Assembly (NCBI GenBank): GCA_017620395.1
Contig: JAFZQJ010000026.1
Coordinates: 62,001-126,000, forward strand
Length of the DNA: 64,000 nucleotides
From: Clostridia bacterium
Lineage (GTDB): Bacteria > Bacillota > Clostridia > Oscillospirales > RGIG8002
Direction: 5' to 3'
In this document: positions 9,063 through 53,617 of the stretch, piece by piece
How positions within the stretch are numbered: the stretch's first letter is position 1
How the letters are laid out: each line of letters starts with the position of its first letter
Notes under the pieces: generated by a model
What the model was told of the DNA's origin: nothing
The model's database searches: none
The model's input: the letters and a program-made list of their open reading frames with translations, nothing else
Translations under genes and position numbers: made by a program

Positions 9063-9073
9063 AAACACGTCAT

Positions 9074-9168
9074 ACAGAGTAGGCGCGGACGCGTGAAGTG
9101 CCGTCGGGACGGGGAGTTGCCCGGCGGACGAAGGAACGTTCCGCGGTGTCCGCGCCGCATCCCGCTGT
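9074..9168 (+). ncRNA. Tetrahydrofolate (THF, class I) riboswitch
   Basis: The conserved folT/THF aptamer pieces occur in order: AGAGTAG, GCGT.AAGTG, GGACGGGG, ACGAAGG, CGGTG and CGCATCC. P1 is formed by ACAG (9074-9077) with CTGT (9165-9168). The downstream gene is the folate ECF transporter component FolT, the usual target. Beyond the aptamer an ATATCGG/CCGATAT hairpin (9171-9197) has CTTCCC in its loop region, which can pair with the GGGGAG of the ribosome site (9215-9222). This suggests translational control by sequestering that site; the expression platform is my inference. Confidence 0.92.
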
Positions 9169-9228
9169 CAATATCGGCTGAAATATCTTCCCGATATCAT
9201 TGCGAGAATGTATGGGGGAGGTATTGTT

Positions 9229-21925: not shown

Positions 21926-22870
21926 ATGTCTGATTTCGACAGAGAAAAATACGGAGATTACGAAGAAGCGATGAAACGGGTTCTGTCCGACCCCATCTTC
22001 AACGACATTGAAGCTGAGGCCGCGAAGCCGGCTGCGCCGCAGGCGAAGCCCGCCGAGGAATCCGCCGCGCCTTCATACGCTCCCGCCGAGCCGGAGCCCG
22101 CGGAGCCGGAGCCCGCGGAGCCGGAGCCGGTATCGTATGAAACGGCGCCGGAAGAACCGGTGCGCCGCGAAGCGGTTCCGGAAGCCGCGGAAACGTCCCG
22201 GGAGGAAGCCGCTTACGTTTCTTCTCACACGGAGCAGTCGGAGGAATATCTGCCTCCCGTCGCCGCGGCGTCCGACGGCAAAAAGAAGCCGCGCAGGGAC
22301 ACCGTCACCGGCGTTTTCGAGTGGGTGGAATCCGCAATCTTTGCTGTCGTGGTTGTCATTCTGCTGTTCACTTTCATCTTCCGCATAGTCGGTATTGACG
22401 GCAGATCCATGGTCCCGACGCTGCAGGACGCAGACAGGGTTGTGATAAGCAATCTTTTCTATACTCCGAAGACCGGCGACATCATCGTTCTCGACACGAG
22501 CGAAGATACTATCTTCTTCAATGGCAGACAGTATTCAAAGCCGCTTATTAAGCGCGTTATCGCGACCGGCGGACAGACCGTCGAGGTTACAAGCTCCGAG
22601 AACGGCGTTCAGAAGGTGCTCGTCGACGGCGTGGAGTTGAAAGAGGATTATATCAACTTCCAGACCTTAACGCACAGCGGCGGACAGGCGAAGCTGACCG
22701 TGCCGAACGGCTATGTCTTCGTTATGGGCGATAACCGCGGCGAGAGTCTTGATTCGCGTTCCTTCGGCTGCATAAGCGAAAACGCGATAGTGGGCAGAGC
22801 GCTGTTCAGGATATTCCCGCTGTCCGAAATGGGACTGCTGACGACTGACGATCCTTATGGAGAACATTAA
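21926..22870 (+). CDS. lepB: Signal peptidase I with long acidic N-terminal extension
   Basis: 314 residues. A cytosolic N-terminal segment of about 110 residues is rich in Ala, Pro and Glu and includes tandem AEPEP units (about 53-68). One transmembrane helix follows (about 131-153), then the catalytic domain. Catalytic serine S161 is in GRSMVPTL, and general-base lysine K209 in KPLIKRVIATGG. MGDNRGESLDSR is box E. This is the conventional Ser/Lys enzyme, distinct from the Ser/His SipW enzymes at 46107 and 48449. The gene overlaps rbgA by 14 bases. Confidence 0.94.
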   Translation: MSDFDREKYGDYEEAMKRVLSDPIFNDIEAEAAKPAAPQAKPAEESAAPSYAPAEPEPAEPEPAEPEPVSYETAPEEPVRREAVPEAAETSREEAAYVSSHTEQSEEYLPPVAAASDGKKKPRRDTVTGVFEWVESAIFAVVVVILLFTFIFRIVGIDGRSMVPTLQDADRVVISNLFYTPKTGDIIVLDTSEDTIFFNGRQYSKPLIKRVIATGGQTVEVTSSENGVQKVLVDGVELKEDYINFQTLTHSGGQAKLTVPNGYVFVMGDNRGESLDSRSFGCISENAIVGRALFRIFPLSEMGLLTTDDPYGEH

Positions 22871-45926: not shown

Positions 45927-45955
45927 TTGACATATGGGAAAATATGAGCTATACT
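45927..45955 (+). promoter_or_regulatory. Promoter of the SipW/TasA-like locus
   Basis: TTGACA (45927-45932), 17 bases, TATACT (45950-45955). A 5' UTR of about 145 bases follows with a GGGGTCAGCCCC hairpin and no named riboswitch that I recognise. Confidence 0.7.
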
Positions 45956-46106: not shown

Positions 46107-47162
46107 ATGAGGCAGAAAAAAGAAAATGTGAATACCGCTGTTGATGAACAGACCGCCGTCGAGCAGGAATCGACCGTGAAAAAGGTTTTTAACATAGTTA
46201 AGAGAGTTTTCACGTGGATCGTCGTCGTGTTTGCCGTGTTTATGATGATATTCACCATAATCTCGACAACGACCTTCAACCGCAGGGACAGAGGACTGTT
46301 CGGATACAAGATGTTCATCGTTCTTTCAGACTCCATGAGCATCTCGGAGCAGGATACCACCGCCGAGGATAAAGCGGGCATCCACTTCAACGCCGGCGAC
46401 CTCATCTTCAGCAAGAATCTCGACCCCGAGGACTGCGTCCAGCTTCAGCCGGGCGACGTAGTCACCTTCCAGTCGCAGAACGGCGACAACTTCGGCGAGG
46501 TCGTCACCCATAAGATCAGAAGGATCACCAAGACCGCTGAGGGCAGCCTCGGTTTCGTCACCTACGGTATCAACACGAATACCGACGACGAAACCATCGT
46601 AACGCCCGATTTCGTCCTCGGCAAATACGCCGGCAGGATCCCGAAGCTCGGCACCTTCCTCAGCTTCCAGAAGTCCACCGTCGGTTACATAACCTGCATA
46701 TTCGTGCCCTTCGTGATTCTTATAATCATTCAGGGCGTTAAGAGCATCCGCCTGTTCCGGGTTTACAAGAAGGAGCAGCACGCCGAGCTCGACGCCGAGA
46801 AGGCGGAACTCGCCGCGCAGAAGGCGGAGACCGAAAAGATGATGCGCGAAATGCTTGAGCTCAAGGCTCAGCTTTCCGGTCAGCAGACGCCGCAGCAGGC
46901 CGCTTCTCCCGTTCAGGAAGCGCCGCAGCCCGCGGCGGCTCCCGAACCCGTGCCCGCGGTAATACCCGCGCCGGAAGCGAAACCCGCTCCCGCGCCGCAG
47001 CCCGAACAGGCTCCCGCCGAGGATCCGCTCGCGGCGGAAAAGGCGGAACTTGAGGCGAAGAAGGCGGAGACCGAGCGTATGATGCGCGAAATGATGGAGC
47101 TCAAAGCCAAGCTCGACGCGCAGCTCAATCAACCGAAAGACGGCTCCGAAGGAGCGGAATAA
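46107..47162 (+). CDS. sipW: SipW-type signal peptidase I with cytoplasmic coiled-coil tail
   Basis: 351 residues. First transmembrane helix about 35-55, catalytic Ser S76 in VLSDSMS, and general-base His H135 in EVVTHKIRR (Ser/His as in archaeal and SipW enzymes, not Ser/Lys). A second helix lies near the middle (YITCIFVPFVILIII). The remaining 120 residues should be cytoplasmic. They contain two near-identical coiled-coil units (AEKAELAAQKAETEKMMREM and AEKAELEAKKAETERMMREM) joined by a Pro/Ala-rich linker. ATG 46107 follows TCGGAGG. It heads the matrix-type locus. Confidence 0.9.
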   Translation: MRQKKENVNTAVDEQTAVEQESTVKKVFNIVKRVFTWIVVVFAVFMMIFTIISTTTFNRRDRGLFGYKMFIVLSDSMSISEQDTTAEDKAGIHFNAGDLIFSKNLDPEDCVQLQPGDVVTFQSQNGDNFGEVVTHKIRRITKTAEGSLGFVTYGINTNTDDETIVTPDFVLGKYAGRIPKLGTFLSFQKSTVGYITCIFVPFVILIIIQGVKSIRLFRVYKKEQHAELDAEKAELAAQKAETEKMMREMLELKAQLSGQQTPQQAASPVQEAPQPAAAPEPVPAVIPAPEAKPAPAPQPEQAPAEDPLAAEKAELEAKKAETERMMREMMELKAKLDAQLNQPKDGSEGAE

Positions 47163-47238
47163 TCACCCGAAGCGGTATATGCGGCGCATCCGTGACGATA
47201 ATACGAATGCGTTATTGAATGGATAGGAGGCAACGGCT

Positions 47239-48429
47239 TTGTTCAGAAATGAAAAGCAACAACTGAAAAAGCGTAAGAATGCGGCGCTGAAGGTGCTGCT
47301 GTTGTCTGCGTTCGTTACTTTTATGTGTTTCTCTATGCTTGTCGGCACGACCTACGCGTGGCTGACGGACAGCGTCACGAGCGGTAAGAACAGGATCGTT
47401 TCCGGCAGTCTGGATATTCAGATGAACTACTATAACGGCACGGAGTTCGTTTCGGCCGAAGGCAACGTCTTTGAGGACGTTACCTGGCAGCCCGGTGCCG
47501 AAACGCACCGCCTTATACAAATTTACAACAACAGCGATATGCCCGTCAAGTTTGCGTTCAAGGCGAACGTAATGAACGAATACGGCAGCATAAACACTCA
47601 GGGAAACAGTTTTCTGCTTTCCGATTCTCTGGTCTCTTATCAGGCGACGTATAAATATAGCGAGCTGACCGCCGCCCAGACCGCTTTGGGCAGTATTGAA
47701 GCGACCTGCAAGAATTTGCAGAAGAATGCTTTCTCGGGCTTCGAGCTGATAAACAACAATTCCGATCTCATCGAACCCGGCGAATCCAATTACATTCTCC
47801 TCGCGCTTTATATGCCGGAAACCGGCGTCGAAAACTCTACCGTTAAAGACGGAATGCCGTTGCCCGAGTTCGACATCGAACTTGCTTTGACTGCCACTCA
47901 GGCGTCCGGGACTCAGGATTCCTTCGGTTCCGTTCCCGGTAACAGCGCCGTTCCTATCGAGAGTGTTAACAAGGCGAAGGTTACCTACGTGCTCGCCCCG
48001 GATACGCTCCTTTACGAAAAGGAAGACGAGAATCACAACAAGTATTATGAAATAAAGGACGCCGCCGATTTCGCAAGATTCGCAACCGCTGTCAACAAAG
48101 GAAATAACTTCGCCGGCAAGACCGTCAAACTGACTTGTGAGGAAGAAATCGACCTCGACGGCGCCGCCTGGCCGCTGACAGGCGATTTTGCCGGAACTTT
48201 CGACGGCAATAACAAGACGATCAAAAACTTCAGTGTTTCGGCTACGGATACCAACGACGTTGTGCTCTTCAAGCTTATCAACGGCGGTACCGTTACCGGC
48301 GGAACAGTCAAGAACCTCAAAGTTGACGGCGTTGCCGCGACCATATCTTACACCAGCGGCGATCCTAAAGCCGGCAGTTATACCGGCAGCGTACCCGAAA
48401 CCGGAATAATCACGGTAGTTATCGCTTAA
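47239..48429 (+). CDS. SipW-dependent TasA/CalY-like surface protein A
   Basis: 396 residues, TTG start after AGGAGG. The N-terminus (VTFMCFSMLVGTTYAWLTDS, then GKNRIVSGSLDIQM) is a SipW-type signal peptide followed by the TasA/CalY-like beta domain. The C-terminal third has a GLUG-like strand-turn unit (GDFAGTFDGNNKTIKNFSV). It is the largest subunit and directly precedes the second SipW peptidase. Role as a fibre or matrix subunit is inferred. Confidence 0.8.
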   Translation: MFRNEKQQLKKRKNAALKVLLLSAFVTFMCFSMLVGTTYAWLTDSVTSGKNRIVSGSLDIQMNYYNGTEFVSAEGNVFEDVTWQPGAETHRLIQIYNNSDMPVKFAFKANVMNEYGSINTQGNSFLLSDSLVSYQATYKYSELTAAQTALGSIEATCKNLQKNAFSGFELINNNSDLIEPGESNYILLALYMPETGVENSTVKDGMPLPEFDIELALTATQASGTQDSFGSVPGNSAVPIESVNKAKVTYVLAPDTLLYEKEDENHNKYYEIKDAADFARFATAVNKGNNFAGKTVKLTCEEEIDLDGAAWPLTGDFAGTFDGNNKTIKNFSVSATDTNDVVLFKLINGGTVTGGTVKNLKVDGVAATISYTSGDPKAGSYTGSVPETGIITVVIA

Positions 48430-48448
48430 CGCCTTTCCGGAGGAGCAT

Positions 48449-49108
48449 ATGAGCAAAGATAAAAGCACAAATGCCCCGCGCAGTACATGGCGCAAGGTCT
48501 GGAATATCGTCTCCATCGTTCTTGTGGCGATAGTCGTGCTCGCGGCTGTTCTGCTTATGGGCGCAAAAGTTATCGGACTAAGAACATATAATGTCATATC
48601 AAATTCGATGAGTCCGAAGTATGTAAAAGGCGATTTGATTTATGTAAGGCCTGTGGATGTGGAAGATATTCCTCAAGAGATTAAAGAGGGCGATGTAATT
48701 AGTTTCGTCATGGATCCGGACAAACCCGAAGATGATGTAGACGAAGCCAAGAAAAAGAGCGGCGACTTGTTAGTCGCTACCCATAGAGTTTGGCGAATGG
48801 ATGTAGAGAACAGTCGGATTATCACAAAAGGTGATGCCAACCCATCGCCGGATGTTGAGCCGCGTCACTTCAAAAACGTAATCGGCAAAGTTGTGTTCAA
48901 GCTTCCGTTGCTCGGTGATGTTGCCGACTGGGTGCAGAACCCGCCCGGAACCTACATAGCGGTCACCGTCGGCGCGGTGCTGTTGATTCTCGTCTTCCTG
49001 CCCGATATGATAGGGAAGAGGGTAAAGGCGAAAACGGGGCAGAACGTTATTGTGGAAGACGTCCCCACGGCTGAAGAGAAGCCGGACGGCGACGATAACT
49101 TTCAATAA
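48449..49108 (+). CDS. sipW: Second SipW-type signal peptidase I
   Basis: 219 residues. Helix about 19-40, catalytic S53 in VISNSMSP, H112 in VATHRVWRM, and a C-terminal helix (YIAVTVGAVLLILVFLP). A shorter tail than the first paralogue. Upstream ribosome site CGGAGGAG. Presence of two SipW enzymes within 3 kb suggests substrate specialisation. Confidence 0.9.
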   Translation: MSKDKSTNAPRSTWRKVWNIVSIVLVAIVVLAAVLLMGAKVIGLRTYNVISNSMSPKYVKGDLIYVRPVDVEDIPQEIKEGDVISFVMDPDKPEDDVDEAKKKSGDLLVATHRVWRMDVENSRIITKGDANPSPDVEPRHFKNVIGKVVFKLPLLGDVADWVQNPPGTYIAVTVGAVLLILVFLPDMIGKRVKAKTGQNVIVEDVPTAEEKPDGDDNFQ

Positions 49109-49146
49109 ATAATAATATAGTATTCTCTTGAAAAGGAGCATCAACT

Positions 49147-49983
49147 ATGAAAAAAAAGATAATCGTTGTATCCGCAATCGTCGCGCTGGTTGCCATCGCG
49201 CTGGTCGGCTCTTCGCTCGCGTTCTTCCGCGACGCTGATGAGAAGGCGAACGTATTTGTGTTCGGCAGCGTCGACATCGAGCAGCATGAGAAGGACAGAG
49301 ACGGCAACGACTTCGTTGACAACAGCATCCTGATGCCCGTCATCGATACGACTCTCGGCACCGACAGCGAGTCCGCGACCACGAGAGACGCCAACGGAAT
49401 GCCCACCGACGAGAACTTCCGCGATAAGATCGTCACCGTCGAGAACGTCGGCAGCGAAGACGCTTACGTCCGCACCTACATAGCCGTTCCGAAGGCGCTT
49501 GACGACGCGGGTATCATTAAGCGCGATATCAAGGCCGGCACCGACTGGACCGCCGTTTCCGCGGATCCCGTTGCGGTCATCACTAAAGACGGCATCGAGT
49601 ATAACGTCTACGCGTACTACTACAACGCCATTCTTCCGGACGGCGAGACCACTCCCGCTCTGCTCAACGGCGTCTATCTCGATTATAAGACCGACTGCAA
49701 GACCGCGGTTGATGCAAACGGCGTTACGCAGCTGACTCATCTGACTTATCCCGGCGCCACCGCGGTTGTCGAGGTTCCCGTCGATGATTTCGCCATCGGC
49801 ACCCCCGGCACCGATCCCGCCGTTAATCCGACCGAATACAAGAGCTACGTCCTCGTCGCCACCGAAGGCGTACAGGCCCGCGGCTTTGCGAACGCCGCCG
49901 CCGCCACCAACAGCGCGTTCGGCGATTTCTCCACGATGAGCGCAGCCGACGCGACCGCGCACTTTGACGGCTTCTGGAACTGA
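49147..49983 (+). CDS. SipW-dependent TasA/CalY-like surface protein B
   Basis: 278 residues. Signal MKKKIIVVSAIVALVAIALV with SSLAFFRDADEKANVFVFGSV at the cleavage and beta-strand junction (first 20 residues of that stretch carry the SipW signature LAFFRD). Long acidic beta-rich body; no catalytic motif. It is closest in layout to protein C, and both start with MKKK plus an isoleucine/valine-rich core. Matrix function is inferred. Confidence 0.82.
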   Translation: MKKKIIVVSAIVALVAIALVGSSLAFFRDADEKANVFVFGSVDIEQHEKDRDGNDFVDNSILMPVIDTTLGTDSESATTRDANGMPTDENFRDKIVTVENVGSEDAYVRTYIAVPKALDDAGIIKRDIKAGTDWTAVSADPVAVITKDGIEYNVYAYYYNAILPDGETTPALLNGVYLDYKTDCKTAVDANGVTQLTHLTYPGATAVVEVPVDDFAIGTPGTDPAVNPTEYKSYVLVATEGVQARGFANAAAATNSAFGDFSTMSAADATAHFDGFWN

Positions 49984-50008
49984 CGTTCCGGACTTATTCG
50001 GGTTTTAG

Positions 50009-50077
50009 AGGAGAACCTGTTTGTCGTAACACGTGAGCGACAAAATCTCCTTTGAAATAATTTTCAAAGAAAGGAGA
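50009..50077 (+). promoter_or_regulatory. Alternating hairpins that can hide the protein C ribosome site
   Basis: TCTCCT (50046-50051) can pair with AGGAGA upstream (50009-50014), with an inner TTGTCG/CGACAA stem. Alternatively it pairs with the AGGAGA of the ribosome site downstream (50072-50077) through a TTTGAAA/TTTCAAA helix. The two pairings exclude each other. Confidence 0.6.
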
Positions 50078-50087
50078 AGACTACTGT

Positions 50088-50762
50088 ATGAAGAAAAAGG
50101 TTCTTGTCGTTGCAGCTATTGTTGCTATCATCTCCATTCTGTCGGTAGGCACTTTGGCGTGGTACAGCGATTCGCAGGAGAAGGTCAATAAGTTCATCGT
50201 GTCCTCTGATCAGAACGGTGACCCCGATTTCTCCGTTGAAGTGCAGGAGTCTGTTGACGATACCACGAGCGACGTCGTGCCGACCGTTATAACAGACACC
50301 GACGGCAATCCCACCGGACTCCAGTATGACGGCATACTTCCCGGCGACTTCCTGTCGAAGGAGCCGAAGGCTGTCAACACCGGCGCTTATGATGAATACA
50401 TCAGAATTACCGTAACGCTGGTTCCCGATGACGCTGCCGCGTGGGCCGCGATGGTTCCTGACTTCAAGCTGAACGACTACCTCCAGGATGTTGACGCCAA
50501 CTTCGTGTTCGACGGCGTTTCCGCCGACGGCCTTACCGCCACTTATTACTACAATAAGATTCTGGCTCCCGATGAGGCTACCGAAGACGTGTTCAAGGGC
50601 TTCAACGTTCCTGACGTCGAGATGACCACCGCCAGCGGTGTCGTCTCTCTTGACCTGAAGGTCAAGGCTGACGCTGTCCAGACGAGAAACATCGTCAATC
50701 CTGACGATTACGCCACCGTCGCGCTCGCCGCGAAGGACGCGTTCACACGTCTGGGCGCGTAA
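50088..50762 (+). CDS. SipW-dependent TasA/CalY-like surface protein C
   Basis: 224 residues. N-terminus MKKKVLVVAAIVAIISILSV then GTLAWYSDSQEKVNKFIVSS is the typical SipW signal (xAWxxDxxxxxxN pattern). Beta-rich body with AVNTGAYDEYIRI resembling TasA strands. No enzymatic motif. Preceded by the switch-like hairpins at 50009-50077. Confidence 0.83.
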   Translation: MKKKVLVVAAIVAIISILSVGTLAWYSDSQEKVNKFIVSSDQNGDPDFSVEVQESVDDTTSDVVPTVITDTDGNPTGLQYDGILPGDFLSKEPKAVNTGAYDEYIRITVTLVPDDAAAWAAMVPDFKLNDYLQDVDANFVFDGVSADGLTATYYYNKILAPDEATEDVFKGFNVPDVEMTTASGVVSLDLKVKADAVQTRNIVNPDDYATVALAAKDAFTRLGA

Positions 50763-50842
50763 CCAACTTTTCCCCGTGTTTCTTAACGTAGCATGACATG
50801 CGTTTTGAATAGCAAAACACAAAATTAATCTCGAGATTCAGT

Positions 50843-50902
50843 CCGCTCGAATCCGCAAAAGTTCGAGCGGCGAACAAAGGGCTTGAAGACTCAAACCCTT
50901 TG
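50843..50902 (+). other. Two tandem hairpins before protein D gene
   Basis: CCGCTCGAA (50843-50851) pairs with TTCGAGCGG (50862-50870). CAAAGGG (50875-50881) with CCCTTTG (50896-50902), extended by CTTGA/TCAA. No T runs, so processing sites, stabilisers or attenuators are more likely than terminators. Confidence 0.6.
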
Positions 50903-50944
50903 TCCGCCAGGAAAGATTTGTCCCAGTTTTTAAGGAGGAAGCGT

Positions 50945-51499
50945 ATGGCAAAAGTAAAATTATGCTTTATTGCGTTTCTGATGTTAATAATGTCCCTGCT
51001 GTCCTTTGACACCGTCGCGTATTACACCGTAACGGGTACGGCGCGTAACGTCATAACCTTCGGCGACATCCCGTCGGAAGTTATCGAAACGACCGCCACC
51101 GGCGACGACTTCCCTGAGGGCGGCGTATACGTCATGCCCGGCGATATCGTAAGCAAGATCGTCAAGGTTGCTAACAAATCCGAGCATCCGTTCTACGTCA
51201 GAGTCAAGCTTGTCAAGGGCTCCGACAACGTCGAGCTCACGCCCGAGGAGTGCCTCGCCATCGAGACCGACACCGTCAACTGGACGTATATGGAAGACGG
51301 ATATTACTATTACAACAAGGCAGTTCCCGGCTACGGCGTGACCGAGCCTCTGTTCAAGGAGGTCGAGGTCGTCGGCGAAAAGATCACGAAGGAGCAGATA
51401 GGCTCCATCCTGACCGTCACCGTTAAGACCTTCGTCGTACAGAGCGAGAACAACGCCGACACTCCGTTTGAGGCCGTTGGTTGGCCCGAAGAAAGTTGA
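50945..51499 (+). CDS. TasA/CalY-like surface protein D
   Basis: 184 residues from ATG 50945 (ribosome site AAGGAGG). The N-terminal FIAFLMLIMSLLSFDTVAYY then TVTGTARNVITFG is a SipW-type signal with the YY-turn in place of WFTD, so cleavage is less certain than for B, C or F. Body with GGVYVMPGDIVSKIVKVANK, a TasA-like strand. It precedes the membrane-anchored protein E. Confidence 0.72.
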   Translation: MAKVKLCFIAFLMLIMSLLSFDTVAYYTVTGTARNVITFGDIPSEVIETTATGDDFPEGGVYVMPGDIVSKIVKVANKSEHPFYVRVKLVKGSDNVELTPEECLAIETDTVNWTYMEDGYYYYNKAVPGYGVTEPLFKEVEVVGEKITKEQIGSILTVTVKTFVVQSENNADTPFEAVGWPEES

Positions 51500-51507
51500 G
51501 GCGGCTG

Positions 51508-52140
51508 ATGAAAAGAACAGCGAAGTTTTTTGCAATGTTGATAGTTGCCGCGCTCCTGCTTGCAGGCGCAGTACCCGCGTTCGCCTATAACGGCGAGGTC
51601 GTTTACGACGGCAACGCTAAGGAGTTCGTCTTCGCGCCCGGCAGCGAGTATTCGCCCACGGACCTTTTCCCGGATCTCAAAAACGTAATGCCGGGTGACA
51701 GTCTCACGCAGAAGATAACCGTCCGCAACACCGCGGATAAAAAGGTCGACGTCAAGATCTATATGCGTTCGCTCGGAGCGCAGGAGGGAACCGAAGACTT
51801 CCTTTCCCAGCTTTCCATGAAGGTTATCGAGAGCTCCGACAAGACGTTGTTTGACGCGCCTGCGGATCAGACCGACGGACTCACGGATTGGGTTCTGCTC
51901 GGGACGCTGCATTCCGGCGGCGAAACCGATCTGACCGTTCAGCTCGACGTTCCGGCGACTATCGGAAACGAGTTCAGGGGCGCCATCGGCTACATAGACT
52001 GGGAGTTCAAAGTCGAAGAGATCCCCGTCGAAGAGCCGAACACGGGCGACGAAGGGCTGCCGGTGTGGCCGTTCATCGCGGGCGGCGCTGCGCTTGTTCT
52101 CATAGCGATCCTGCTTGTTGTTTTCAAGCGTAAGAAGTAA
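51508..52140 (+). CDS. Conventionally exported, C-terminally anchored protein E
   Basis: 210 residues. Class I signal (MLIVAALLLAGAVPAFA) rather than SipW type; a beta-rich body (PGDSLTQKITVRNTADKKVD) resembling TasA-fold or adhesion strands. The C-terminus is EPNTGDEG, then a hydrophobic helix and KRKK. EPNTG is a variant of the sortase LPxTG site. It could be the wall or membrane anchor of the fibre. No sortase gene lies in the window. Confidence 0.8.
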   Translation: MKRTAKFFAMLIVAALLLAGAVPAFAYNGEVVYDGNAKEFVFAPGSEYSPTDLFPDLKNVMPGDSLTQKITVRNTADKKVDVKIYMRSLGAQEGTEDFLSQLSMKVIESSDKTLFDAPADQTDGLTDWVLLGTLHSGGETDLTVQLDVPATIGNEFRGAIGYIDWEFKVEEIPVEEPNTGDEGLPVWPFIAGGAALVLIAILLVVFKRKK

Positions 52141-52176
52141 TTTGTTTAACACAGTATTTTTTGGGAGGAACTTAGA

Positions 52177-52863
52177 ATGAAGAAAGCGACAAAGACAGCT
52201 CTTTGCGTAAGCATCGCTTTGCTTATTTTGTGGAGCCTCCTCGGCGCCGGCGCCTCGCTGGCGTGGTTCACGGACACCGTGACCGACGTTCGCAATCAGT
52301 TCATCATCGGCGTCGCCGATATCAGAGTATCATATTACAGCCTCGTTCCCAACCCGACTTACGATTTCAGAGAGCTCCTGCCGACGACTACGGATTTGTT
52401 CGACGATCAGGCGCTTTACGAGCCCGGATATACAAAGGTCGTTTATATAAAAGTCGAGAATCTCGGCAGCATCCCGGTCGATTTCAAGCTTTCCGTCACG
52501 GCCAACAGCTGGGTCGACGGCAGAAATTCGCTTGGCAACGTGATACATCTTCCGTCGTATCTGAAGTTCGGTGTTCTTGTCGACAACAACCTTACCGATC
52601 TGACCGCCGCGGTGAACGCGGTCGGCGGTCGTCCGGATGCGCGCAACATAGCGGCGCTGGATATGGACGATTATGAAGAGCTCAATCATTACAACAGCAA
52701 CAGCGCGTCCCTTGACGTCAACGAAACGAAGTACGCCGCCATTGTCGTCTATATGCCCGAGGACGTCGGCAACGTCGCCAACTACGTCGGCGATACTCAG
52801 CCGACCGTCAACCTCGGCGTGACCGTGCTCGCTTCGCAGAAGGGAACCATCGACCAGCTTTGA
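52177..52863 (+). CDS. SipW-dependent TasA/CalY-like surface protein F
   Basis: 228 residues. SipW signal with GASLAWFTDTVTDVRNQFII, and FKLSVTANSWVDGRNSLGN near the middle similar to protein A. The layout (PGYTKVVYIKVENLGSIPVDF) is TasA-like. No enzymatic motif. The gap to protein G contains a CAAGCGC/GCGCTTG hairpin. Confidence 0.82.
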   Translation: MKKATKTALCVSIALLILWSLLGAGASLAWFTDTVTDVRNQFIIGVADIRVSYYSLVPNPTYDFRELLPTTTDLFDDQALYEPGYTKVVYIKVENLGSIPVDFKLSVTANSWVDGRNSLGNVIHLPSYLKFGVLVDNNLTDLTAAVNAVGGRPDARNIAALDMDDYEELNHYNSNSASLDVNETKYAAIVVYMPEDVGNVANYVGDTQPTVNLGVTVLASQKGTIDQL

Positions 52864-52869
52864 TAACCG

Positions 52870-52886
52870 CAAGCGCCGAGCGCTTG
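52870..52886 (+). other. Hairpin between protein F and G genes
   Basis: CAAGCGC (52870-52876) pairs with GCGCTTG (52880-52886), loop CGA, no T run. Confidence 0.5.
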
Positions 52887-52967
52887 AATCTTGATAAAAC
52901 GCCTCTTTGCGCAGCGCCTGCCGTGCACCGTCGTTAAAAAGTGGCTTTGAAAGGAGAAAAGGCGATA

Positions 52968-53573
52968 ATGTCTGAAAAGGTTTTTACCAAAAAAATGACA
53001 CTGTCAATATGCCTGATATTACTATGCTTGTGCGCCATCTCCATATCTGCCGGAGCGTTCTTTTCGGATACGGCGAAGTCCAATACGAAGACGTTCTCGA
53101 CCGCCACTTATGACCTGACTATCACGGCGACGAAGCAGGTGACTGAAAACTCGACGACAACGACGGAAAGCGTTACTGCGACTGCTGCCGATCCTCATAT
53201 TTACGAGTTTACAATACTTCCTGATGCGGATAAAGATGAGGGTTACTCGGTAAGACTACAGATTAAAACCGAAATAACAGCAACGTCGTCCGGATATTGT
53301 AAAATCGTAATCAAGGATAAAGAAGCTCCGACAACGGTCCTTGGTACGTATTATTCAAAGCAAATCGCAAAAGCGAATGCGGCAAACGCCGATATCACAA
53401 CGCTTCGCGATATCAAGATTATTACAGAAAAAGCGATAATTGTCGAATTCATTCCTCTCTGGGGAACGTATTCCGGTAATGATGCGCTGGCAAATAACAA
53501 GATTATCAACGTGGCTGCTGCCGGCACAATAACCCTTTCCGATCCGCCCGATCCGCCTTCCACTAATCCGTAA
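52968..53573 (+). CDS. SipW-dependent TasA/CalY-like surface protein G
   Basis: 201 residues. ATG 52968 after AAAGGAG; an earlier in-frame GTG at 52941 would include that site. Signal with LLCLCAISISAGAFFSDTAK and TFSTATYDLTITATKQ beta start. Thr/Ser-rich beta body, short PPDPPSTNP end. Last gene of the locus. Confidence 0.8.
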   Translation: MSEKVFTKKMTLSICLILLCLCAISISAGAFFSDTAKSNTKTFSTATYDLTITATKQVTENSTTTTESVTATAADPHIYEFTILPDADKDEGYSVRLQIKTEITATSSGYCKIVIKDKEAPTTVLGTYYSKQIAKANAANADITTLRDIKIITEKAIIVEFIPLWGTYSGNDALANNKIINVAAAGTITLSDPPDPPSTNP

Positions 53574-53588
53574 TCAAATAGTTGCTTT

Positions 53589-53617
53589 AACCGGCGGCCG
53601 TAAGGCCGCCGGTTTTT
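53589..53617 (+). terminator. Terminator closing the SipW/TasA-like locus
   Basis: CCGGCGGCC and GGCCGCCGG with a GTAA loop and T5. Confidence 0.9.

What the first reader, a model, noticed from the sequence alone, without database searches (positions are those of the whole stretch)
46107..53573. Multi-subunit SipW/TasA-like surface-fibre locus with two dedicated signal peptidases
Two SipW-type Ser/His signal peptidases alternate with five proteins having clear SipW-type signals (47239, 49147, 50088, 52177, 52968), a sixth with a weaker one (50945), and one conventionally exported anchored protein. B. subtilis has one SipW and two main substrates (TasA, TapA). Here the bodies differ in size (184-396 residues) and one ends in a GLUG-like region. 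The layout suggests a hetero-oligomeric fibre or camelysin-like surface layer. The function is inferred; the signal peptides and protease motifs are visible.
Basis: partly seen in the sequence, partly recalled or inferred. Interest (0 to 1): 0.85.

Follow-up and report, generated by a model that had tools for sequence, protein, structure and literature searches.

The report
Two-peptidase TasA-like surface fibre operon
A rumen bacterium carries one operon that joins two separate kits for exporting and building TasA-like surface fibres, each with its own special signal peptidase, on what looks like one wall-anchored base; relatives of the kit are common in gut Clostridia but apparently undescribed.

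Summary
46107-53573 encodes nine co-oriented genes between an 11/12 promoter match and a strong terminator: two SipW-type (Ser-His-Asp) signal peptidases (SipA, SipB), six subunits with aromatic-P1'/P2' SipW-type signals, and one conventionally exported PxTG-anchored protein. All nine genes are in order in congeners. The anchor has relatives in at least 186 genome stretches, mostly from gut and rumen Clostridia.

(1) SipA and SipB are separate clades. Where the systems lie apart, SipA operons hold only A-type substrates (S1/S5/S6; 14 A, 0 B) and SipB operons B-type (S2/S3/S4). The window locus therefore looks like a merger of two single-peptidase operons. (2) The "conventional" anchor is itself TasA-like: profile match to TasA far above shuffles, and the AlphaFold model's best folds are the archaeal bundling pilin (Z 8.9) and TasA (Z 7.9). 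It carries a sortase-type signal, unlike the sortase-independent Bacillus and C. perfringens systems. (3) SipB-only relatives insert a large, often VWA/SpaA-like protein before the anchor, suggesting tip-shaft-base fibres.

Fibre assembly, donor-strand exchange and peptidase-substrate pairing are inferred, not shown. New variant of a known kind.

The parts
45927..45955 (+). sigma-70-like promoter TTGACA-17-TATACT upstream of SipA
   Evidence: 11/12 match, the best in the region; consensus match only
46107..47162 (+). SipA: SipW-type signal peptidase with a long duplicated Glu/Lys/Ala/Pro-rich C-terminal extension
   Evidence: TIGR02228 56.8 bits over cut-off; Ser/His/Asp kept, GD Asp replaced by Ile (Thr or Ile in all 22 orthologs); own clade 100/98
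47239..48429 (+). S1: A-type SipW substrate, long form, with a variable C-terminal beta-rich region
   Evidence: SipW-type signal AWLTDS; TTG start with good RBS; fastest-diverging subunit with S6
48449..49108 (+). SipB: second SipW-type signal peptidase
   Evidence: TIGR02228 72.5 bits over cut-off, Pfam Peptidase_S26 over cut-off; Ser/His/Asp/Asp; own clade
49147..49983 (+). S2: B-type (BsaA-like) subunit
   Evidence: TIGR04090 below cut-off; profile of S2/S3 matches TasA, score 30.8 against null 11.9 +/- 2.2
50088..50762 (+). S3: B-type subunit
   Evidence: TIGR04088 over cut-off; same profile as S2
50945..51499 (+). S4: core B-type (BsaA-like) subunit, almost always beside the anchor or the adhesin
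   Evidence: TIGR04090 36 bits; 56/60 orthologs match; S4-S2/S3 profile match 99.8%; P1'/P2' aromatic in nearly all orthologs
51508..52140 (+). ANC: TasA-like anchor/base; conventional signal peptide, beta-sandwich, EPNTGDE sorting signal, TM segment, KRKK
   Evidence: TasA profile score 36.4 against null 13.7 +/- 3.0; AF2 pLDDT 84.6, AbpA Z 8.9, TasA Z 7.9; LPXTG_anchor over cut-off
52177..52863 (+). S5: short A-type SipW substrate
   Evidence: TIGR04088 over cut-off; AF2 pLDDT 75; TasA fibre Z 7.2 over 148 residues
52968..53573 (+). S6: fast-evolving SipW substrate that accompanies SipA
   Evidence: SipW-type signal, P2' aromatic in 25/25 orthologs; follows S5 or SipA in relatives
53589..53614 (+). 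intrinsic terminator just after S6
   Evidence: 11-bp stem, 9 GC pairs, 4-nt loop, T tail
21926..22870 (+). context: housekeeping (bacterial P-type) signal peptidase I that could process ANC
   Evidence: TIGR02227 121.8 bits at G000:C26:84325-84822

Best explanation
One operon makes a wall-anchored, multi-subunit TasA-like surface fibre. The six subunits leave by Sec and stay tethered by signal peptides whose cut sites carry aromatic residues at P1'/P2', which ordinary signal peptidase cuts poorly. SipB releases the BsaA-like B-type subunits (S2, S3, S4) and SipA releases the A-type subunits (S1, S5, S6). Each freed N-terminus starts with the TasA-like aromatic donor strand and complements the next beta-sandwich, giving a heteropolymer. 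ANC, exported by the ordinary peptidase, is a TasA-like domain that sortase links to the wall, so it is the base of the fibre. S1 and S6, which vary fastest, are the exposed or adhesive parts. The locus arose by merging two single-peptidase operons. Shown by computation: gene content, synteny, active-site residues, cut-site signature, TasA-like sequence or fold of ANC and S2/S3, module structure. Inferred: polymerisation, donor-strand exchange, which peptidase cuts what, sortase linkage, surface role.
For: Peptidases and signals. ANC and S2/S3 profiles match TasA 8aur well above 40 shuffles. ANC model: AbpA Z 8.9, TasA 7.9/7.5, then FimG and other donor-strand pilins. S5 aligns to the TasA fibre chain over residues 1-194, Z 7.2. 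SipA-only operons: 14 A-type, 0 B-type; SipB-only: 103 B-type, with A-type almost only in two-peptidase-type or cut loci. SipA in 15/17 readable type II operons against 0/15 type I, p 2.4e-7. PxTG in 69/80 anchors and two sortases in the genome. Single-operon signals. Literature: TasA donor-strand fibres (PMC9674648, PMC10151520), SipW-dependent BsaA polymers (PMC7395162), aromatic P2' blocks LepB (PMC10269814).
Against: No experiment on these proteins. S5 and S6 have no sequence link to TasA, and S5's best fold hits are tied with glycosidase N-terminal domains. S2-S4 and S6 were not modelled. Curated cut-offs for BsaA (TIGR04090) and camelysin (PF12389) are not met. One type II operon (L084) has S5 but only SipB. 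Some anchors have degenerate sorting signals. Related species are not independent counts.
Confidence: 0.68

Rival explanations
1. Two independent fibres or matrices share one operon only for co-expression: a SipB/B-type/ANC fibre, and a SipA/A-type set of surface proteins (S1, S5, S6), with no mixed filament.
For: The modules stand alone in G050, G349 and G437. Module A elsewhere has its own TasA-like PxTGD anchor. A-type and B-type profiles match only weakly (E 0.012), and S5 has no sequence link to TasA.
Against: In type II loci the genes are interleaved (S1 between SipA and SipB; S4-ANC-S5-S6 contiguous), with a single anchor, in many families.
Confidence: 0.35
2. The SipW substrates are monomeric or membrane-associated surface proteins (camelysin-like layer, or Ig-like wall binders of the WxLIP kind) and form no fibre.
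For: Two S5 orthologs weakly match WxLIP_PGBD, and WxLIP is among S5 fold hits at Z 6.8. Camelysin was named as a protease-like surface protein.
Against: Conserved TasA-like N-terminal strand. ANC's best folds are fibre-forming pilins. BsaA relatives form very stable polymers (PMC7395162).
Confidence: 0.12
3. SipA is a degenerate regulator or chaperone rather than a peptidase, and SipB processes all substrates.
For: All 22 SipA sequences lack the first Asp (GD to GT/GI) and many carry a C-terminal extension. L084 has S5 with only SipB.
Against: Ser, His and second Asp are kept in every SipA; SipB also loses the first Asp in about a quarter of loci. SipA occurs as the only SipW-type peptidase of A-type operons, and is strongly conserved (60% mean column identity).
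Confidence: 0.12

Closest known systems
Clostridium perfringens sipW-bsaABCRSD operon (PMC7395162)
   Same: SipW-type peptidase plus several secreted BsaA-like proteins; S2-S4 are distant BsaA-family relatives
   Different: One SipW there; polymerisation needs no srtB and BsaA has no LPXTG signal; a two-component system lies in the operon. Here there are two SipW, A-type substrates, and a PxTG TasA-like anchor
Bacillus subtilis tapA-sipW-tasA (PMC9674648, PMC10151520)
   Same: SipW processing, aromatic P2' cut site, TasA-like sandwich and N-terminal strand; ANC could play TapA's initiator part
   Different: One SipW, two substrates; TapA is itself a SipW substrate and not wall-anchored by sortase; here ANC is conventionally exported
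Bacillus cereus sipW-calY/tasA with CapP (PMC13082335, PMC10151520)
   Same: More than one camelysin-type subunit, mixed filaments, separate assembly factor
   Different: Described as sortase-independent; one SipW
Archaeal bundling pilin AbpA of Pyrobaculum (PDB 7ueg)
   Same: Best fold match of ANC (Z 8.9)
   Different: Archaeal homopolymeric pilus; no sortase anchor
Sortase-assembled Gram-positive pili
   Same: VWA/SpaA-type large protein in some sister loci, wall anchor with PxTG signal
   Different: Shaft subunits here carry no sorting signal and no pilin sortase lies in the locus; assembly is presumed non-covalent

Membership tests
SipW / ER-type signal peptidase I | Match to TIGR02228 over curated cut-off | tested here: met
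   SipA 56.8, SipB 72.5 against 51.85
SipW / ER-type signal peptidase I | Catalytic Ser and His (not Lys), plus Asp | tested here: met
   Ser, His and second Asp in both; first Asp absent in SipA
Bacillus SipW equivalog (NF046067) | Curated cut-off of 190 bits | tested here: not met
   69.7 and 57 bits: related, not orthologous by that model
BsaA family (TIGR04090) | Curated cut-off of 60 bits | tested here: not met
   S2 24.5, S3 19.7, S4 36.0 bits
TasA/camelysin (PF12389) | Pfam gathering score of 22.5 | tested here: not met
   Best 18.7 bits, S3
TasA superfamily fold | TasA/AbpA-type beta-sandwich: ANC | tested here: met
   AF2 pLDDT 84.6; AbpA Z 8.9, TasA Z 7.9 and 7.5 as the top rows; profile match. 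Top Z is near the background level of 7-8, so the profile match carries weight
TasA superfamily fold | TasA-type beta-sandwich: S5 (A-type) | tested here: inconclusive
   Whole-length TasA fibre match Z 7.2, tied with unrelated domains
TasA-like donor-strand fibre | Filament formed by N-terminal donor-strand exchange | not testable with these tools
   Only the N-terminal signature was seen
Sortase-anchored protein | C-terminal PxTG motif, TM segment, positive tail, sortase in genome | tested here: met
   TIGR01167 20.4 against 15.9; two sortases; PxTG in 69/80 relatives
Sortase-assembled pilus | Sorting signal on shaft subunits and pilin sortase in the locus | tested here: not met
   Only ANC carries a sorting signal; the only sortases found are elsewhere on contig C26, outside the window
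GLUG repeat protein | Pfam GLUG match in S1 | tested here: not met
   No GLUG match; DUF3060 below cut-off

The most novel reading that the evidence does not exclude
A usher-free pilus built like a chaperone-usher pilus: a TasA-fold base fixed to the wall by sortase, a shaft of donor-strand-linked A-type and B-type subunits released by two non-interchangeable SipW peptidases, and (in sister loci) a VWA tip adhesin. The use of two peptidases would set subunit order or stoichiometry.
Probability: 0.27. Interest if true: 0.8.

Novelty: new variant of a known kind. Interest (0 to 1): 0.6.

Why it matters
TasA-type fibres are known from Bacillus, C. perfringens and archaea, and the bacterial systems described are reported as sortase-independent or not anchored that way. 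Here a TasA-like base with a sorting signal is a conserved partner of SipW operons across gut and rumen Clostridia, with evidence that two SipW lineages each follow their own substrate class. That gives a natural test of signal-peptidase specificity, and a candidate adhesion or biofilm fibre in mostly uncultured gut bacteria.

Tried and rejected
Sequence search of PDB with S3, S4 and S5, and with profiles of S2/S3, S4, S5 and ANC: no TasA or other credible hit, so fold and shuffled-control profile comparisons were used instead. GLUG domain: not found by Pfam. S5 and S6 as direct TasA relatives by sequence: scores at the shuffle level. 'SipA is dead because it lost an Asp': rejected as the first choice, since the second Asp is universal and SipB loses the first too. 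A camelysin metalloprotease role: no test supports it. Papers on a sortase-anchored TasA system, or on two SipW in one locus: none found in the held library in seven searches; absence there is not proof. A first counting of SipA by distance alone (16/23 against 0/18) was replaced by a count of operons whose start is readable.
Full report
Observation. The window holds nine co-oriented genes from 46107 to 53573, after an acyltransferase-like gene and before uvrB-uvrA. The best promoter match of the region (TTGACA-17-TATACT, 45927-45955) lies upstream of the first gene, and an 11-bp GC-rich terminator (53589-53614) follows the last, so one operon is likely. I call the genes SipA, S1, SipB, S2, S3, S4, ANC, S5, S6. 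All have plausible ribosome-binding sites; ANC starts at 51508.

Peptidases. Both pass TIGR02228 and resemble Bacillus SipW without reaching that equivalog's cut-off. Ser, His and the second Asp are kept in both lineages. All 22 SipA sequences replace the first (GD) Asp by Thr or Ile; SipB does so (by Leu or Ile) in about a quarter of loci. The human signal peptidase complex has a Ser-His-Asp triad (PMC13385932); which of the two Asp residues is catalytic I take from memory, so SipA activity is likely but untested. A maximum-likelihood tree separates SipA and SipB with 100/98 support, with long-branch warnings that mainly concern two other genomic copies.

Signals. At the predicted cut the orthologs of S2-S6 carry aromatic P1' and P2' residues (S4 60/60, S5 43/43, S6 25/25, S2/S3 82% at P2'), and ANC orthologs never do at P2' (0/73). 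E. coli LepB cuts such sites poorly while SipW cuts TasA, which has Phe at P2' (PMC10269814). ANC is therefore probably handled by the ordinary peptidase, whose gene is also in the window.

Relatedness of the subunits. S2, S3 and S4 form one BsaA-like group (S4 against S2/S3, 99.8%), below the curated BsaA cut-off. Aligned to TasA (sequence checked against PDB 8aur), the S2/S3 profile scores 30.8 against 11.9 +/- 2.2 for 40 shuffles, ANC 36.4 against 13.7 +/- 3.0, and S4 21.4 against 12.8 +/- 2.0; S5 and S6 are at background. The ANC match covers PGDxLTxxxxxxN...EDFLSQ. The ANC model (pLDDT 84.6, pTM 0.80) has AbpA (Z 8.9) and TasA (Z 7.9 and 7.5) as its four best rows, followed by FimG and other donor-strand pilins; Foldseek also ranks TasA first. 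The S5 model (pLDDT 75) matches the TasA fibre over its whole length at Z 7.2, tied with other domains, so A-type membership stays open.

Anchor. ANC ends in EPNTGDE, a hydrophobic segment and KRKK, over the LPXTG cut-off. 69 of 80 relatives keep PxTG, most often PPQTGD. The genome has two sortases, on the same contig but outside the window.

Distribution and architecture. A scan of GTDB genomes found 186 stretches encoding ANC relatives, of which 80 loci were read. Two layouts dominate. Type I: SipB, B-type subunits, S4, a large secreted protein, a small subunit, ANC. Of four large proteins scanned, two have VWA and three show SpaA/DUF7601-like traces near the C-terminus. Type II, as in the window: SipA, SipB, B-type and long A-type subunits, S4, ANC, S5, S6. 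Among operons whose start is readable and that hold a peptidase, SipA is in 15/17 type II and 0/15 type I. In a sample of 391 Clostridia genomes, ANC relatives occur in 12 (5 of them close, at 230 bits or more), and true SipA (239 bits or more; the next match has 115) in 7, including all five with close ANC.

Two modules. In G050, G349 and G437, SipA is not linked to ANC/SipB but sits in its own operon with A-type long subunits and/or S6, a small subunit, and a separate TasA-like PxTGD or degenerate anchor, while the SipB operon is type I or a SipB-less remnant. Counting by profile, SipA-only operons hold 14 A-type and 0 B-type subunits. SipB-only operons hold 103 B-type, and the 29 A-type there come from two-peptidase-type loci, most of them cut by contig ends or by my gap rule, plus the exception L084 and the tandem locus L113. 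The simplest history is that the type II locus merges two single-peptidase fibre operons and keeps one anchor. Species are related and the counts are not independent; the p-values should be read with that in mind.

Within the genus, S1 (46-76% identity) and S6 (48-95%) diverge most, and S4, ANC and S5 least (82-96%); dN/dS is 0.27-0.33 for S1 and 0.20-0.29 for S6, against 0.06-0.15 for S4, ANC and S5. This fits exposed S1/S6 on a constrained scaffold, but all values are below 1.

Mechanism and rivals. I judge a wall-anchored TasA-like heteropolymer most likely (0.68). Chief rival: two separate assemblies sharing an operon. Polymerisation, strand exchange, peptidase pairing in vivo and sortase linkage are inferences.

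Known systems. C. perfringens sipW-bsaABCRSD and B. cereus sipW-calY/tasA already have several subunits, so many substrates is not new. Two SipW lineages with distinct substrate classes in one operon, and a TasA-like base with a sorting signal, were not found in the papers held.

Noticed in passing
window 47239-49108: Between the window and its closest congener L028, synonymous divergence is far higher in the S1 3' part and SipB (dS about 0.9-1.0) than in S2, S6 and UvrB (about 0.1), which suggests allele exchange around S1-SipB.
   Followed up: partly
own genome contigs C3, C4 and C18 (loci L035, L036, L037): At least five further long A-type SipW-signal proteins lie outside the operon, in pairs on C4 and C18, with no SipW-type peptidase found beside them.
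   Followed up: partly
L005:6206-18601 (own contig C30): Two more SPase-like proteins (304 and 444 aa) lie near a 1956-aa protein with a SipW-like signal and no Pfam match.
   Followed up: no
window 46107-47162, C-terminal third: SipA carries a duplicated AEKAELxxxKAETExMMREMxELKA segment with Pro/Ala linkers; purpose unknown.
   Followed up: no
L113: A type II and a type I fibre locus lie in tandem on one contig.
   Followed up: no
window 9073-9169: THF riboswitch upstream of a likely folate-related membrane transporter gene.
   Followed up: no
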